This document shows positions 34,147-63,429 of a DNA stretch of 64,000 nucleotides, in pieces (position 1 is the first letter of the stretch; the number at the start of each line of letters is the position of its first letter). The DNA is taken from contig NZ_CP021416.1 of NCBI RefSeq assembly GCF_002162315.1, positions 1,438,207-1,502,206 of the forward strand, written 5' to 3'. Under the pieces are notes generated by a model. The model worked only from the letters and a program-made list of their open reading frames with translations, was not told the origin of the DNA and ran no database searches. A program made the position numbers and the translations under genes. The DNA is from Sulfurospirillum diekertiae (GTDB lineage Bacteria > Campylobacterota > Campylobacteria > Campylobacterales > Sulfurospirillaceae).

Positions 34147-34177
34147 TTTACATGTAAAGAAAATCTTTACATGTAAA
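34147..34177. terminator. Two palindrome copies forming a hairpin between convergent genes
   Basis: Copies at 34148-34157 and 34167-34176 lie 9 bases apart, so that GTTTACATGTAAAG pairs perfectly over 14 bp with CTTTACATGTAAAC around a 5-base loop. It sits between the ends of ackA and the minus-strand yqeY gene. It could end transcription from both sides, although the T-tract after it is poor. Confidence 0.55.
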
Positions 34178-55987: not shown

Positions 55988-57106
55988 GTGAAACTGATTC
56001 ATTTTTCGGACACGCATTTAGGCTTTAACGATTTAGATGTCATCAATGAGCTCGGTATCAATCAACGTGAGGCTGATTTTTACGATGCTTTTTCGCAAGT
56101 TATTGAGCAGATTAAAGCGATAAAACCCGACTACATCATCCACACAGGCGATCTCTTTCACCGTCCATCTCCCAGTAACCGAGCTATCACTTTAGCTCTT
56201 GAGCAATTCAAAATCATCGAAGCGCTTAACATCCCATTTATCATGATAGCAGGCAATCACTCCACCCCACGTACCAATTTAAGCTCTCCCATCCTTAAGA
56301 TATTTGAAAACTTTAAAAATGTTTATGTTTCGTACAATCAAGAGTACAAAAAAATTGAGTTTGAAGATGTCGTCTTTCACACTTTGCCGCATATGCACGA
56401 TGAGACAAAAGCCCTTTCTCAAATCGAACTGTGCGAAGCAAATATTGATACAACCAAACGCAACATCATGATGCTTCATTGCTCTGTCGGTGCGCACTAT
56501 CTCATGGCAGAGTTTGGCGAGTGGGTGTATCCGCACGATAAAGAGAGCCTTTTTCCCAAAGTGGATTATGTAGCCCTTGGTCATTGGCATGGCTTTGGAA
56601 AAGTAGGCAAACACGAAAACGTTTACTATGCAGGTTCCACTGAACGTACCAGTTTAAACGACAAACGAAACTCCAAAGGTTTTGCTCTTGTCACGCTCGA
56701 AGAATCTTTACATGTAAACTACCACGAGATACAAATTCGCCCCATTAAAACCTATGAGATTGATTGTGAAGACTACGAGCGCTCCGTTGAGTCTTTACAT
56801 GTAAACGATACAAAAGACGCTCTTGTCGAAGTCAAACTGACCAACCTCACCCCATTGCAGTCCATCGACATCCAAACACGTGACATCAAAAATCTCTTTG
56901 GCGAAGCCTTACATGTAAGTATCAAAAGAGAGTTCAAACAAACCAGCGGTGAAGCTACACTAAATGACATCGAAGCCCTCTCGTTGGAAACGTACTTTTT
57001 AGAACACATCAAAGAAGAGAGTCAGCCTGAAGAGTTTGAGCGACTCAAAGGAAAAATCCAAGGCTTGTTTAGTGCCTACGAAGAGGTGAGCGATGATACT
57101 CTCTAA
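55988..57106 (+). CDS. sbcD: SbcD/Mre11-type nuclease subunit
   Basis: The 372-residue Mn-dependent nuclease subunit acts in DNA double-strand break and hairpin processing. SDTHLG (about 8-13), HTGDLFHRPSPSN (about 53-65), AGNHS (about 88-92) and ALGHWHG (about 196-202) are the calcineurin-like phosphoesterase motifs with all metal ligands. The C-terminal part (about 265-372) is the SbcC-binding region. The start is GTG 55988. It overlaps sbcC by 14 bases. Three palindrome copies (56708, 56795, 56909) all read Leu-His-Val. Confidence 0.94.
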   Translation: MKLIHFSDTHLGFNDLDVINELGINQREADFYDAFSQVIEQIKAIKPDYIIHTGDLFHRPSPSNRAITLALEQFKIIEALNIPFIMIAGNHSTPRTNLSSPILKIFENFKNVYVSYNQEYKKIEFEDVVFHTLPHMHDETKALSQIELCEANIDTTKRNIMMLHCSVGAHYLMAEFGEWVYPHDKESLFPKVDYVALGHWHGFGKVGKHENVYYAGSTERTSLNDKRNSKGFALVTLEESLHVNYHEIQIRPIKTYEIDCEDYERSVESLHVNDTKDALVEVKLTNLTPLQSIDIQTRDIKNLFGEALHVSIKREFKQTSGEATLNDIEALSLETYFLEHIKEESQPEEFERLKGKIQGLFSAYEEVSDDTL

Positions 57107-59462
57107 ACTCCACCTTGAAAACTTCAAACGCTACACTTCCTTTGACATTGAGTTTGGCGAGGGGCTTATCGGCATCATCGGTAAAAATGGCAGTGGTAAA
57201 TCAACCCTCTTTGAAGCCATTCTTTTTGCGCTATATGGCGAGCTTCGAAATAAAAAATTTAAAGAAGTCATCCGAAACGCCAGTGCGAGTGATAAAGATG
57301 CTGTTTTAGTGGAGCTTGATTTTGAATTTGAGAGCATAGCGTACAAAGTCATGCGTGAGTTTCGTGGAAAAGCCCTCAGTGCGAACGCCAAGCTGTATAA
57401 AAATGGCGAGCTTACCACCAGTGGCGCGAGAGAAGTTACCGTGGCTATCACGAAACTAACGAAGATGAGCAAAGAGGCATTTTTGCATACGCTTTTTGCC
57501 TCTCAAAAAGAACTTACTAGTCTCAGTACGCTTAAAAATGAAGATCGAAAAAAGATGATACGCAAACTTCTTGGGCTTGAAAAGATAGACTTTGTGGAGA
57601 ATGAACTTATCGAAAAAAGCAGAGAACTCAAACGCGACATCGCCGCAAGTGCAGAGTTTCTCTTAGGCGAGGAAGAACTCAAAAGTAAAACAGCGTTGAT
57701 AAAAGAAACTACCGCTACAAAACAAGCGTTTGAAAAAGAAGTAAAAACCAAATCCACAGAACTAGAAACCACTAAAAAACAAGAGTTACATGTAAAGAGT
57801 GAATTAGAGCTTTTTGTCAAAACAAAAGAGCAGAAACAAAAGCTCATCAGCGAACTTTCCCTCATCAAAAACTCTATAACTTCAAATCTAGCTACGCAAA
57901 CCAAACTCATCGAAGAGCTCAAAACCTTAGAAACAAAAGCCAAAGAACTTAAAAGTTTAAGTACCATTAAAAAAGAGTACGAATCTTTACATGTAAAGCT
58001 CAAAGAACACGAAACTCTCAAAAATATACAGATAAAAAAAAGAGGGCTTAGAAAAGAGCAAACCCAGTTGCGTGCCCAGTACACCAAAGCCAAAGCAGAC
58101 ATCGCAAATTTGGAAGAACAAACCAAACCGTATGAGACACTTTTAGGGCAAAAAAAAGAAAATGAAGCTTTACATGTAAAGCTAAAAACCGAACTTTTGG
58201 GTAAGCAAACAGAGCAAAAACAACTCCAAAATGAACTCTCAGCCGAACAGCGAGTTGTATCTGACACACAACAAAAGATAGCCAAGCTACAAAGCTTAGG
58301 TAGAGAATCAAACTGTCCTACCTGTACACGACAACTACTCGATGAATACGACAATGTCATCGCATCCCTCAACGACATCGTGCAAAAGACGCAAAGTCAA
58401 AAGATAGACAAAACCAAAGCAAAACTTGAACTCCTCACCAAACAGATAGCGGAGCTTGAACTTCAAAAAGAGCAAACGCAAAAAGCCTTACATGTAAACG
58501 AGACGGCACTAAGTTTGATACTCAGTAAGCAAAAAGATTTGGCAAACGCCAAAGAGCATTTTACGAAAGTCAGTGAACAAGGCAAACGCAATAAAGAAGA
58601 GCTAGACAAACTCGCACAACACGCTTACGATGAAGCTTTACATGTAAGCCTACAAAAAAGCTTTTTGGAGCTAAAACCAAAGTATGAAGCCGTTCTAAGT
58701 CTTGAAACAGAACTCAAACGAGAGCAGGGCGTGAGGGAGGATTTGGCGCTTACATGTAAGAGTGCAGAAGCTTTACATGTAAAGGCAAAAGAGAAAGAAT
58801 TGGAAGTGCAAAAAACACTGTACGATGAGCCAAAACACACCGCAAAACAAAGCGAATACGACGAACTTCAAAAGCAAAAAGAGAAACAATACAGCGTTAT
58901 TTCAGAGCTAAAAGAAAAGATAGCCAAAAATGAGGGCGAGATAAAAACCTTGCAAAACGCTCTGGAAAATAACGACATACAACTTAAAAAAGTACAGAGT
59001 AAAAAAGACGATTTGCAAGACTATGAAAAGATAAAAGTCAGCCTCAGCGAGTTTAAAACAAAACTCAACTCAAAAATAGCCCCACGCATCTCACAAATCG
59101 CCTCCCAAATGTACGCCACCATCACCAAAGGCAAATACCAATACATCGAAGTGAACAACGACTTTGACTTTTTCATCTACGATGAGGGCAAATGCTACCC
59201 CATAGAACGCTTCAGCGGCGGCGAGATAGATCTTGCCAACCTAGTGCTTCGCATTGCCATTTCCAAAACACTGAGTGAACTCAGCGGTGCAAGTAGTGTC
59301 GGATTTTTAGTTTTTGATGAAGTGTTTGGAAGCCAAGACGAAAACCGAAGAATGGAAATCTTAGAAGCGTTTCATACCATAAAAGAACAGTACAGACAGA
59401 TATTTTTAATAAGCCATGAGATGGAGATAAAAGAGATGTTTGAGAGAGTTGTGGAGTTGTAA
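57093..59462 (+). CDS. sbcC: SbcC/Rad50-type SMC-like ATPase
   Basis: The 789-residue protein is shorter than E. coli SbcC (about 1050) and closer in size to archaeal Rad50. Walker A is GKNGSGKST (about 31-39), the zinc hook CPTC lies at about 408-411 between two long coiled coils, and the C-terminal lobe has FSGGEIDLANLVLRIAIS (signature) and FLVFDEVFGSQD (Walker B). With SbcD it opens hairpin or palindrome ends and protein-blocked ends. Eight palindrome copies lie in its coiled-coil part (57785-58782), giving repeated Leu-His-Val. The last known copy in the window is here. Confidence 0.95.
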   Translation: MILSKLHLENFKRYTSFDIEFGEGLIGIIGKNGSGKSTLFEAILFALYGELRNKKFKEVIRNASASDKDAVLVELDFEFESIAYKVMREFRGKALSANAKLYKNGELTTSGAREVTVAITKLTKMSKEAFLHTLFASQKELTSLSTLKNEDRKKMIRKLLGLEKIDFVENELIEKSRELKRDIAASAEFLLGEEELKSKTALIKETTATKQAFEKEVKTKSTELETTKKQELHVKSELELFVKTKEQKQKLISELSLIKNSITSNLATQTKLIEELKTLETKAKELKSLSTIKKEYESLHVKLKEHETLKNIQIKKRGLRKEQTQLRAQYTKAKADIANLEEQTKPYETLLGQKKENEALHVKLKTELLGKQTEQKQLQNELSAEQRVVSDTQQKIAKLQSLGRESNCPTCTRQLLDEYDNVIASLNDIVQKTQSQKIDKTKAKLELLTKQIAELELQKEQTQKALHVNETALSLILSKQKDLANAKEHFTKVSEQGKRNKEELDKLAQHAYDEALHVSLQKSFLELKPKYEAVLSLETELKREQGVREDLALTCKSAEALHVKAKEKELEVQKTLYDEPKHTAKQSEYDELQKQKEKQYSVISELKEKIAKNEGEIKTLQNALENNDIQLKKVQSKKDDLQDYEKIKVSLSEFKTKLNSKIAPRISQIASQMYATITKGKYQYIEVNNDFDFFIYDEGKCYPIERFSGGEIDLANLVLRIAISKTLSELSGASSVGFLVFDEVFGSQDENRRMEILEAFHTIKEQYRQIFLISHEMEIKEMFERVVEL

Positions 59463-59488: not shown

Positions 59489-61449
59489 ATGAATATATCA
59501 AAAATAAAAATAAAAAACTTTAGGTTATTAAGAGATTCAGTATTAGAAGTGAAAAAAGATTTATCTTTATTGATAGGTAGAAATAACAGTGGTAAAACTT
59601 CGCTTTTGGTTTTATTTGAGAAATTTTATAGCAATGAAGATTTTACATACGATGATTTTAGTTTATGTTTGCGAGAACAGATTCATGACATAAATGATAC
59701 TACCAATATTCAAGATTTATCAATACAAATGATTTTAGAAATAAATTATGATGGGACTGATAATTTAGAAAAACTATCAGAATTTATTTTAGATTTAGAC
59801 CCAGAACAAAATGTGGTAAAGATACTGTTTGAGGTAAGCATCAAAAAAGAAAAAATACTGCCTATTTTAGAATTACTTAATGAACCTGATAAAAAAACTA
59901 GATATATCAAAAAGAACTTTCAAAATTTTTTGACAACAACCATATATTCATTTGAAAATGATGAAGATTTACTAGAGGAAAATAGGTATAAATTAATTAA
60001 GAAAGATTTAAAACAAGTTAAAAATCTAATAAATTTTCAAATTATTCATGCTAAAAGAAATGTTTCTAGTTCAGATGACAACAAAGGCAAAAGAATACTT
60101 TCAAGTATGACTACGAAATATTTTAATCAAAAAAGTATTGTAGACCCAAATTTTTCAGACATTAATCAAATGATGATAACCATGGATGGTACTCTTAATA
60201 CAGAGTATGATACAAAAATTCAAAAGATTTTTTTAAAAATTGGGAAAAAGACTTTTTTAAAATATTTGATACTTTTAAAAAGTTATATCTGACTTGGAAT
60301 CAAATGAAGTAATAAGCAATTCTTCAAAGGTTGTTTATGGTGATGCTTCTAATCATTTGCCAGAACATTTAAATGGGTTGGGATATATGAATATTTTATA
60401 TCTTCTTTTAGATATAGAAATGAAAAAAAAGAGTTTCAAAGAAGAAGGAAAAGATATTAACTTACTTTTCATAGAAGAACCAGAAGCTCATACTCATCCG
60501 CAAATGCAATACAAATTTATAGATAAGATAAGAAAAGTTCTTTTTGAAATATCGAATTTGCAAACGGTCATTACAACACATTCTGCCCAAATCGTGGCAA
60601 GATGTAATTTCCAAGATATAAGATATTTACTCAATATCAATAATGAAAACATAAAAATTAAAAACTTTCATTCTGAATTAAAAGCACAATATGGTACAGA
60701 GGAAGAAGAATTTAAATTTGTAGAACAGTATTTGACTTTGCAAGCATCAGAGTTATTCTTTGCCAATAAAATTATATTTATCGAAGGAACTACAGAAAAA
60801 ATGTTACTTCCTTATTACATTAATAAATTTGATGAAGAGAGGAAGAGTATTCCTAATTACATACCAATTTCTTCTCAAAATATTTCAATTGTAGAAGTTG
60901 GGGCTAATGCAGAAGCTTTTGATAAATTGGTAAGATTTTTAGATATTCAAACTCTAATAATTACAGATATAGATACTACATTAAAAACAACTAATACATC
61001 AAGTACTGCTTATCCCGCACATGAAGTTGAAGGAGCAACTCATACTAGTAATGAAACAATAAAAAAAATATTTTCATGCACCTGATGTAAACTCTGCAGA
61101 TTTTCCGCAGTGGTTTGAAAATTTAAAAAATAATACTTTGTCAATTACTGATGCAAGCAAAATTAAAATTTTTTATCAAATAAGTGAAGATAGTTATCAT
61201 GCTAGAAGTTTTGAAGATGCTTTTATAAAAGTTAATTTGACTAAGTTAATTGATCAAAAAGATAACTTGAGAGGTTTACAAAATAAAAGTGAATTAACTA
61301 ACACTACAGGAATTTATGATTTGACAGAGAAAATATTAAAGAAAAAATCTGACTTTGCATTCTCTTTATTGTATTTGGCTTTATCAAAAAATATAGACTG
61401 GCAAATGCCTTTATATATTAAAAAATGCTTTAGAATGGATCCAAAATGA
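59489..61449 (+). CDS. gajA: GajA-like OLD-family nuclease (ATPase + TOPRIM), three apparent frameshifts
   Basis: Three open pieces fit one protein of about 653 residues. The ATPase part has LIGRNNSGKTSLL (Walker A, about 30-42), LLFIEEPEAHTHPQ (Walker B) and TTHSAQIVARC (His switch). The TOPRIM part has IIFIEGTTEKMLL and LIITDIDTT, which carry the metal-binding Glu and DxD. That is the class 2 OLD layout, and class 2 genes sit next to UvrD-like helicases, as here (Gabija). Breaks lie at T7 60228-60234, A5 60277-60281 and A8 61061-61068. One-base edits restore the chain through NWEKDFFKIFDTFKKVISDL and KKYFHAPDVNSADFP. In Gabija, GajA nicks DNA when nucleotide levels fall during phage infection. 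Confidence 0.8.
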
Positions 61450-63429
61450 CGCCTCTTGATAGTATTAAACAATGTATTGAAGATAAAAAATGTTTTGTTC
61501 TTCAAGGTGGTGCAGGTAGTGGTAAAACAGAAACATTGAAAAATGTCTTAGAAAATATATCTGAAAACTATCCCAATAAAAAAGTTGCTTGTATAACACA
61601 CACTAACTTAGCCGTTGATGAGATAAAATCAAGAGTTGGTGATAAATATACAATTAGCACCATACACTCTTTTTTAAATTCAATAATTAAAGATTATAAA
61701 AAAACATTTTTCAATGTATTTTTGAGCTTTTTAAAGTTGAGAAAATAGAACGAAACGAGGTGGATTTTTACGGCGGTGACGAAAGAGAACAAAAGAAGCA
61801 AGAGCATGAAAAATATAAAAAGGTATATGAAAAATATGCCAAAAAAGCTTTTTACTGTAACGCATGAAAGAATAGATAAGCCAGAAGGAAAAAGAATCTA
61901 TGATGTTAATCCAGTAGCATATAATACAAGTTTAAATACTAGAATTGAGGCATTAAATGAAATCATTAAAAGTCAAATAGAAGCAAAAGACTACAATAAG
62001 ATTCAATATAACGAAACCCGTTTTGATAGTTATAATGATTTAACTTTTGGACATGATGGGTTATTAGAAATCGCATATCAACTTTTTAGCTCTTTCCCTA
62101 AAATTGGTAAAATTCTTCAAGATAAATTTGATTATATTTTTATCGATGAATATCAAGATACCAATGAAAAAATTATACAAATTTTTTTAAGGCATCTTCC
62201 ACAGAACGATAAAACAGTAGTAGGTTTATTTGGGGATGCAATGCAATCAATCTATAAAGATGGAATTGGGGATGTTCAAAACTATATAGCTGATAGTACT
62301 TTAGAGGAAATAATCAAAGAAGATAATTATAGATGTTCTGTTCAAGTAGTAGAATTTATCAATAATATTAGAACAGATGGACTAAATCAAGAAGTTCAAT
62401 TAAAGCATGATGAATCTACTTTGGATGAAAGACAAGGTATTGTCAGTTTTTTTTATTCTATTGTTGATAGTAAGCCTACGGCATTTTCAACCAAAGAAAT
62501 CAAAAAGTCAATATATCGAAAAAATAAACAGTTTAATCGAACATGCAAAGAACAATCAGCCTAATTCAAAATTTTTAATGTTAACAAATAAATCTATTTC
62601 AATAGAGGTAGATTTTCAAAATCTTTATGAAACTTTTGCGCAAAGGTATCAAGAGCCAAAAGAATATATTGATGAAGTATTGATAAAGTTACAACTTATA
62701 GATTTAGTAGAACTTTGTCAATCCTATGAAAATGGGAATTATAATTTTATATTGACTGAATTGAAAAAAGTTGGATACCCTATAAAAACCATAGCGGATA
62801 AACAAAAATTAAAAGAAGATATTGAATATTTATTAAATTTTGAAGGTGGTGCGATAGAGGCACTACATTATGCTTTTAATAATAGGTTAATTAAAAAATC
62901 AGAATCCTTTAATGCCTACATATCAAGAAAAGAAGCTTTTTCGTTGAGTTTAGACAATGATGAATATAGAACATTTAAAGAAAATTATATTTCTGGTCAG
63001 AATACATATACAAGAATGACAAGTGCTGGAATTGAAATTGAAGAAGAACAATTTAATGAATTAGAAAAAGAGTTAAAAAAAGAAAAATTATTTGAAGGCT
63101 TGTTTTCACCAATAGTTACTTTTAAAGAAGTGGTCAATTATTGTAATTATATGAGTGAAAAAGTCGAATATATAACAATGCACAAAACAAAAGGCTCTGG
63201 AATTGAAAATGTCATTGTTGTTTTAGATGAGTATTTTTGGAATGAATATGACTTTTGCAAAATTTTCGATACAACTATTAGTGATACTAAAAAAATTGCA
63301 AGCCAAAAACTTTTTTATGTTGCTTGTTCAAGAACAGAAAAGAATTTGACTTGTATAAAGTTAATTACACAAGATGAGGAAAGTTTGATACAGTCTTTTT
63401 TTCAAAGTGCAATAAGAATAGATTTATAA
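61446..63429 (+). CDS. gajB: GajB-like UvrD-family helicase, three apparent frameshifts
   Basis: The open pieces fit a superfamily 1 helicase of about 661 residues, longer than the roughly 500 of known GajB. Motif I is GGAGSGKTETL (about 20-30), Ia THTNLAVDEI, II FDYIFIDEYQDTNE, III GLFGDAMQSIY, IV EDNYRCSVQVVEF, V EYITMHKTKGSGIENVIVV, and VI LFYVACSRTEKN. All seven are present, so loss of function would come only from the breaks at A7 61698-61704, T5 61849-61853 and A5 62502-62506. The start overlaps the gajA stop by 4 bases, a mark of co-translation. In Gabija this subunit senses DNA ends or intermediates and activates GajA. Confidence 0.78.

What the first reader, a model, noticed from the sequence alone, without database searches (positions are those of the whole stretch)
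55988..58782. Palindrome cluster inside sbcDC, the genes of a palindrome/hairpin nuclease
Eleven of the 34 copies lie in the 2.8 kb from 56708 to 58782, several times the average density, mostly in the coiled-coil part of SbcC where Leu-His-Val is easily tolerated. SbcCD opens DNA hairpins, so either the coiled coil simply tolerates insertion, or the genes are a focus of the process that spreads the motif.
Basis: seen in the sequence. Interest (0 to 1): 0.6.

Follow-up and report, generated by a model that had tools for sequence, protein, structure and literature searches.

The report
Palindrome-marked arms of swapped defence genes
A short DNA word repeated over a thousand times in Sulfurospirillum genomes is packed most densely into a pair of DNA-repair genes that, together with a third gene, flank interchangeable anti-phage genes passed between species, which suggests the word marks DNA for exchange.

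Summary
The cluster is real. Ten copies (not eleven) of TTACATGTAA lie at 56708-58782, 3 in sbcD and 7 in sbcC. This is the densest 2-kb stretch in the 65% of the genome sampled (sbcDC 10 against 1.0 expected, p about 1e-7; 17 of 2000 simulated genomes reach 10 in any 2,075-bp window). The motif is a genome-wide iterated palindrome: 1245 copies here, 49-1496 across Sulfurospirillum, near zero in most of the order.

Coiled-coil tolerance does not explain it: other coiled coils carry fewer copies than average. Copies are not insertions. Repair genes as a class are not enriched.

New: sbcDC is one arm of a module, sbcD-sbcC-[cargo]-DUF2779. The arms are 89-93% identical between species and genera; outer flanks differ and cargo is unrelated (Gabija here; Hachiman, OLD-type and others elsewhere). 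Arms carry 2.6 and 1.7 motifs per kb; cargo carries 0 in 21.8 kb.

The motif behaves like a DNA uptake sequence: kept 39/41 at 83% identity, decayed by point mutation in two sister species that lost it, scarce in foreign genes, paired in terminator-like hairpins. Copy number tracks an orphan adenine methyltransferase (tree-corrected p 0.004). Uptake itself is untested.

The parts
55988..57106 (+). sbcD (Mre11-type nuclease); with sbcC forms the left arm of the module; 3 motif copies
   Evidence: ORF; NCBIfam sbcd/Mre11; homology with other species starts at or up to ~250 bp before its start
57093..59462 (+). sbcC (Rad50-type ATPase, 789 aa, coiled coil); 7 motif copies
   Evidence: ORF; NCBIfam Rad50/sbcC; homology with other species ends within about 13 bp of its stop
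56708..56717 (.). motif TTACATGTAA (Leu-His-Val)
   Evidence: kept in most sbcDC relatives
56795..56804 (.). motif TTACATGTAA (Leu-His-Val)
56909..56918 (.). motif TTACATGTAA (Leu-His-Val); also at the same place in S. arcachonense and some Sulfurimonas
57786..57795 (.). motif TTACATGTAA in sbcC (Leu-His-Val)
57987..57996 (.). motif TTACATGTAA in sbcC; shared with S. arcachonense (62% identical SbcC)
58170..58179 (.). motif TTACATGTAA in sbcC; replaced as a block by TTGTCAACGA in G016 and G021
58488..58497 (.). motif TTACATGTAA in sbcC
58638..58647 (.). motif TTACATGTAA in sbcC; shared with S. arcachonense
58750..58759 (.). motif TTACATGTAA in sbcC (Leu-Thr-Cys-Lys frame)
58773..58782 (.). motif TTACATGTAA in sbcC, 23 bp from the previous copy
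59489..61085 (+). cargo: gajA-like ATPase/TOPRIM gene read in two frames (59489-60292 and 60294-61085); no motif copies
   Evidence: Pfam AAA_15, OLD-like TOPRIM; PADLOC GajA 1.2e-100 and 1.9e-51
61776..63429 (+). cargo: gajB-like UvrD helicase read in two frames (61776-62564 and 62407-63429); no motif copies. The right arm, DUF2779, follows outside the window at G000:C1:1502962-1504443
   Evidence: PADLOC GajB 8.9e-97 and 1.2e-105; DUF2779 position

Best explanation
TTACATGTAA (extended CTTTACATGTAAAG with A/T-rich flanks) is a self-recognition word of the Sulfurospirillaceae that works like a DNA uptake sequence, possibly in a methylated form written by an orphan D12 adenine methyltransferase, as CtsM does for C. 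jejuni. sbcDC is the densest place because it is the left arm of a module, sbcD-sbcC-[variable anti-phage cargo]-DUF2779, that is exchanged between species and genera. DNA carrying many copies is taken up or recombined more often, so often-exchanged arms keep and gain copies while the foreign cargo between them has none. Shown: motif abundance, conservation and decay, module anatomy, cargo variation, arm/cargo contrast in motif density. Inferred: uptake, methylation of this word, and that motif density causes the exchange.
For: 1245 copies against 5 for the reversed word. Kept at 39/41 sites at 83% identity when 19% of 10-mers are identical. In sister species G010 and G017, nested in the motif-rich clade, aligned sites are mostly point-mutated at the background rate. 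Scarce in genes without a G001 relative nearby (0.06/kb) and in the most conserved genes (0.09/kb), commoner in moderately variable shared genes (0.45-0.47/kb). Intergenic 1.49/kb; convergent gaps 3.04/kb; close pairs form hairpins. Several missing sites in sbcC differ by blocks of 5-7 bases without indels, as reported for DUS gained by recombination (PMC2397512). Module: six loci from five species share the two arms, sbcDC and DUF2779, and no cargo. Motif 2.59/kb in sbcDC, 1.68/kb in DUF2779, 0 in 21.8 kb of cargo. SbcC 95% identical in G034 where GyrB is 88%; 93% in G004 where GyrB is 99%. All 15 genus members with the orphan methyltransferase (62% identity or more) have at least 362 copies/Mb; Mann-Whitney p 0.0007, tree-corrected p 0.0036. 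ComEC present in 41 of 44 family genomes.
Against: The word is palindromic, unlike DUS and USS. Repair genes other than sbcDC are not enriched (7 in 17.2 kb; replication genes 0 in 13.3 kb), whereas DUS/USS favour genome-maintenance genes. ComEC does not differ between motif-rich and motif-poor genomes. G013 and G018 keep 389-467 copies/Mb without a detected methyltransferase, and G034, G035 and the f17 genome G161 carry the motif without it. No competence experiment or methylome for Sulfurospirillum was found in the searched library. A module entering non-homologous sites needs more than homologous recombination. The 43%-type sbcDC of G001 has no motif.
Confidence: 0.42

Rival explanations
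1. HIP1-like: the palindrome is made and kept by an orphan methyltransferase plus methyl-directed repair (Elhai's model), with no role in DNA uptake; sbcDC is dense because it is a fast-changing gene that has spent long inside motif-bearing genomes.
For: Palindromic, about one per 2.3 kb, clade-wide, copy number correlates with an orphan D12 methyltransferase, sites decay where it is missing. Model in PMC4390886.
Against: The model predicts many one-off words and single-base gains; one-off words are rare (62 at positions 2-5 against 435 perfect) and missing sites in sbcC are often multi-base blocks. It does not explain 1.7-2.6/kb in both arms and 0 in cargo.
Confidence: 0.22
2. Binding site of an abundant dimeric DNA-binding protein (nucleoid or terminator factor) under direct selection at each site; the sbcDC cluster is local regulation or chance.
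For: Sharp 10-14 bp palindrome with A/T-rich flanks on both sides, strong conservation, concentration just after genes and between convergent genes.
Against: 1245 sites is far more than for known site-specific chromosome proteins (background knowledge); about 490 of 786 sampled copies lie inside genes and change the protein (Leu-His-Val 440 against 82 expected), hard to explain by binding alone; does not predict the arm/cargo contrast.
Confidence: 0.16
3. Tolerance only: the SbcC coil accepts Leu-His-Val, so copies gather there by chance.
For: Six of seven sbcC copies fall in the predicted coil; overall density falls with protein conservation.
Against: Other coils carry 0.16/kb, below other coding sequence; DUF2779 is also dense; SbcC coil density (about 4/kb) exceeds even intergenic density (1.49/kb).
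Confidence: 0.1
4. The sbcDC cluster is selected for sbcDC itself, for example because SbcCD acts at or is regulated by the word.
For: Orthologues at 62-71% identity and one 43% relative are also dense (4 copies against 0.5-0.8 expected).
Against: Palindromes this short do not form hairpins that SbcCD is known to cut (background knowledge); motif-rich genomes such as G001 and G002 lack this sbcDC or hold only a remnant.
Confidence: 0.06

Closest known systems
DNA uptake sequences (Neisseria DUS) and uptake signal sequences (Pasteurellaceae USS)
   Same: Over a thousand copies per genome, conserved sites in permissive parts of shared genes, scarce in recently acquired genes, intergenic and paired in terminator-like hairpins, A/T-rich flanks (as USS), gains that look like recombination (PMC2397512).
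   Different: Perfect palindrome; no enrichment in genome-maintenance genes beyond sbcDC; uptake untested; different phylum.
HIP1 (GCGATCGC) of cyanobacteria
   Same: Highly iterated palindrome, clade-wide with sporadic loss, copy number linked to an orphan methyltransferase (PMC4390886).
   Different: A/T-rich 10-14 bp word, few one-off variants, strong intergenic bias, in Campylobacterota.
CtsM-methylated RAATTY signal of Campylobacter jejuni
   Same: Same phylum; short palindromic self-DNA mark; orphan adenine methyltransferase (PMC8468864).
   Different: RAATTY is common by chance and not an iterated 10-mer; orthology of the Sulfurospirillum enzyme to CtsM was not tested.
Defence islands and exchange hotspots
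   Same: Variable anti-phage systems between conserved flanking genes.
   Different: Arms are sbcDC and DUF2779, move as a module to different chromosomal sites, and are loaded with the clade's iterated palindrome while cargo has none.

Membership tests
DNA uptake sequence (DUS/USS) | Hundreds to thousands of exact copies, far above chance | tested here: met
   1245 copies, reversed-word control 5
DNA uptake sequence (DUS/USS) | Copies conserved above surrounding sequence | tested here: met
   39/41 against 19% of random 10-mers
DNA uptake sequence (DUS/USS) | Scarce in recently acquired genes, placed in permissive shared regions | tested here: met
   0.064/kb in genes without G001 relative, 0.45-0.47/kb in variable shared genes, 0 in 21.8 kb cargo
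DNA uptake sequence (DUS/USS) | Inverted pairs in terminators, convergent intergenic bias | tested here: met
   3.04/kb in convergent gaps; hairpin pairs at 13-23 bp spacing
DNA uptake sequence (DUS/USS) | Enriched in genome-maintenance genes | tested here: not met
   Repair 0.41/kb, replication 0, control 0.49/kb, sbcDC excluded
DNA uptake sequence (DUS/USS) | Promotes uptake or transformation | not testable with these tools
   needs a competence assay; ComEC present
HIP (highly iterated palindrome) | Palindrome at about 1 per 1-2 kb across a clade | tested here: met
   about 1 per 2.3 kb
HIP (highly iterated palindrome) | Matching orphan methyltransferase | tested here: inconclusive
   correlation p 0.0036 tree-corrected, with exceptions; specificity unknown
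HIP (highly iterated palindrome) | One-off variants abundant at outer positions | tested here: not met
   68 at position 1, 62 at positions 2-5, against 435 perfect
CtsM-type methylated uptake signal | Word is methylated and methylation is needed for uptake | not testable with these tools
   no methylome or uptake data found
Gabija (cargo in this window) | gajA ATPase/TOPRIM next to gajB UvrD helicase | tested here: met
   PADLOC hits to GajA and GajB; both genes are split across frames, so function is doubtful

The most novel reading that the evidence does not exclude
A methylated, palindromic uptake word in Campylobacterota guides exchange of phage-defence genes: the arms of a defence module (sbcDC and DUF2779) have become loaded with the word, so that any defence cargo between them is carried along and swapped between species and genera.
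Probability: 0.28. Interest if true: 0.85.

Novelty: new variant of a known kind. Interest (0 to 1): 0.72.

Why it matters
It would be an uptake-type genome word outside Neisseriaceae and Pasteurellaceae, in a group of organohalide-respiring bacteria, joining the two so far separate themes of iterated palindromes with orphan methyltransferases and uptake sequences. It also gives a testable route by which phage-defence genes are swapped between species: motif-loaded arms around motif-free cargo. The natural loss in G010 and G017 gives a built-in control for what keeps such words in a genome.

Tried and rejected
Coiled-coil tolerance: rejected by density in other coils. Insertion of the motif: rejected, no length change. 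Enrichment in DNA repair genes as a class: first suggested by mutY, xseA, photolyase and recG, rejected by an unbiased list built from E. coli orthologues. Competence genes as the discriminating factor: ComEC is present in nearly all family genomes. Simple one-to-one link of motif and D12 methyltransferase: not exact. TTGTCAAC as a second iterated word at the missing sites: rejected, not over-represented. Literature for TTACATGTAA as a bacterial genome repeat: none found; no paper on a Sulfurospirillum uptake word or methylome found in this library.

Full report
WHAT IS THERE. The window belongs to a Sulfurospirillum genome (2,876,536 bp, one contig; genus inferred from named relatives, such as S. 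diekertiae JPD-1). TTACATGTAA, a perfect 10-bp palindrome, occurs 34 times in the window and 1245 times in the genome, against 5 for the word read backwards. Ten copies, not eleven, lie at 56708-58782: three in sbcD, seven in sbcC. No one-mismatch copy lies there.

IS THE CLUSTER MORE THAN CHANCE. In stretches covering 65% of the genome there are 786 copies, 0.295/kb in ORFs and 1.49/kb between them; SbcC is the densest of 1771 ORFs and no other 2-kb place exceeds 6 copies. sbcDC expects 1.02 and has 10 (p 1.4e-7), and 17 of 2000 simulations reach 10 in any 2,075-bp window.

THE WORD. The wider consensus is CTTTACATGTAAAG with A/T-rich flanks on both sides; single-mismatch versions are rare. 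In genes the Leu-His-Val frame dominates, and Leu-His-Val is found 440 times against 82 expected, so the word changes proteins. It is strongest between convergent genes (3.04/kb), lies a median 29 bp after stop codons in co-directional gaps, and close pairs form hairpins such as GTTTACATGTAAAGCAAAAAAGCTTTACATGTAAAG.

SPREAD AND MAINTENANCE. All 24 genus members searched have it, 49 to 1496 copies; other genera of the family 6 to 733; the rest of the order almost none except two genomes of another family (f17, which appears to hold Sulfurimonas) with 340 and 367. Between G000 and G001 (83% identity) 39 of 41 sites are identical while 19% of random 10-mers are. In G010 (49 copies) and G017 (238), sister species nested among motif-rich ones, the same sites are mostly present as point-mutated relics with no more conservation than background. 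So the word is actively kept and decays when something is lost.

A CANDIDATE FACTOR. An orphan D12-class adenine methyltransferase (L190; G000:C1:2607450-2608424; Pfam PF02086) sits in a conserved neighbourhood with no restriction gene visible next to it. A form at least 62% identical is found in 15 genus members, all with 362 or more copies/Mb; the nine with none or with a 56% form have 19-467 (Mann-Whitney p 0.0007; tree-corrected p 0.0036 on 21 species). Exceptions: G013 and G018 in the genus; G034, G035 and G161 outside it. Its target is unknown.

WHY NOT THE COILED COIL. Predicted coils elsewhere carry 0.16/kb, non-coil coding 0.30/kb (a simple heptad scan, not a curated predictor). Nor repair genes: an unbiased set of repair orthologues has 0.41/kb, replication genes 0, controls 0.49/kb.

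WHAT sbcDC IS HERE. Homology to most other sbcDC loci stops at the gene pair; only G007's second copy shares the left flank (12 kb at 95%), and there the match stops 12 bp after sbcC. SbcC does not follow the species tree: 95% in G034 (another genus, GyrB 88%) and 93% in G004 (GyrB 99%). Next to sbcC each genome has different genes: Gabija here (split across frames), Hachiman in G004, PDC-S06 in G034 and G014, OLD/AriA types in G003 and G016, a PifA/Qat-like ATPase in G007, an HNH effector type in G006, Gabija in G035. A DUF2779 gene then follows in G003, G004, G006, both G007 copies, G034 and, just past the window end, in G000 at 1502962-1504443. Pairwise comparison of six loci gives two shared blocks, sbcD-sbcC and DUF2779, each ending within about 20 bp of the gene in most pairs (some pairs extend 40-250 bp upstream of sbcD, and G006/G007a also share neighbouring genes); cargo is never shared. 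Motif density is 2.59/kb in sbcDC, 1.68/kb in DUF2779 and zero in 21.8 kb of cargo; G+C is 0.40-0.45 in the arms and 0.23-0.30 in cargo. These counts come from related copies, so they are not independent trials; but S. arcachonense (62% identical SbcC), G038 (71%) and a 43% relative in G021 are also dense (4 against 0.5-0.8 expected), with partly different sites.

MECHANISM. Most of what was measured matches the reported behaviour of DNA uptake sequences: conserved, in permissive parts of shared genes, missing from newly acquired genes, gained in steps too large for point mutation (PMC2397512). In sbcC several missing sites read TTGTCAACA-like words with 5-7 differences and no indel. In C. jejuni, of the same phylum, a CtsM-methylated short palindrome decides uptake (PMC8468864). 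I therefore take the word as a self-recognition mark acting in DNA uptake, with sbcDC and DUF2779 as often-exchanged, mark-loaded arms. Uptake, methylation and causality are inference. The palindrome and the lack of maintenance-gene enrichment are the main points against membership among DUS/USS, so I do not file it there; I say it works like one.

Noticed in passing
59489-63429: Gabija-like gajA and gajB are each broken across two reading frames; either pseudogenes or indel errors of the assembly.
   Followed up: partly
L139:23-1839 (G000:C1:1150023-1151839): recG is also split into two overlapping ORFs in different frames, which hints at assembly indels in this genome or a broken gene.
   Followed up: no
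34148-34176: Two motif copies 19 bp apart form a hairpin between genes, an example of the genome-wide paired form (excess at 13-23 bp spacing, 22 bp commonest).
   Followed up: partly
G000 sample (L091-L100, L111-L150, L246-L285): A second palindrome, AACATGTT, is 4.5 times over a maximal-order Markov expectation (86 against 19).
   Followed up: no
genomes G139 and G161: Two genomes of a second family (f17) carry 367 and 340 copies while their relatives carry 0-10, so the system may be transferable.
   Followed up: partly
L165, L166, L175: A second, 43%-identical sbcDC type also occurs in the genus, near a DUF2779 gene in G021; it has 0-4 motif copies.
   Followed up: partly
NZ_CP059996.1:1692-2597: A 55%-identical relative of the orphan methyltransferase lies on a S. 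diekertiae plasmid.
   Followed up: no
window ORFs and G000 sample: The iterated word drives a fivefold excess of the tripeptide Leu-His-Val in the predicted proteins.
   Followed up: yes
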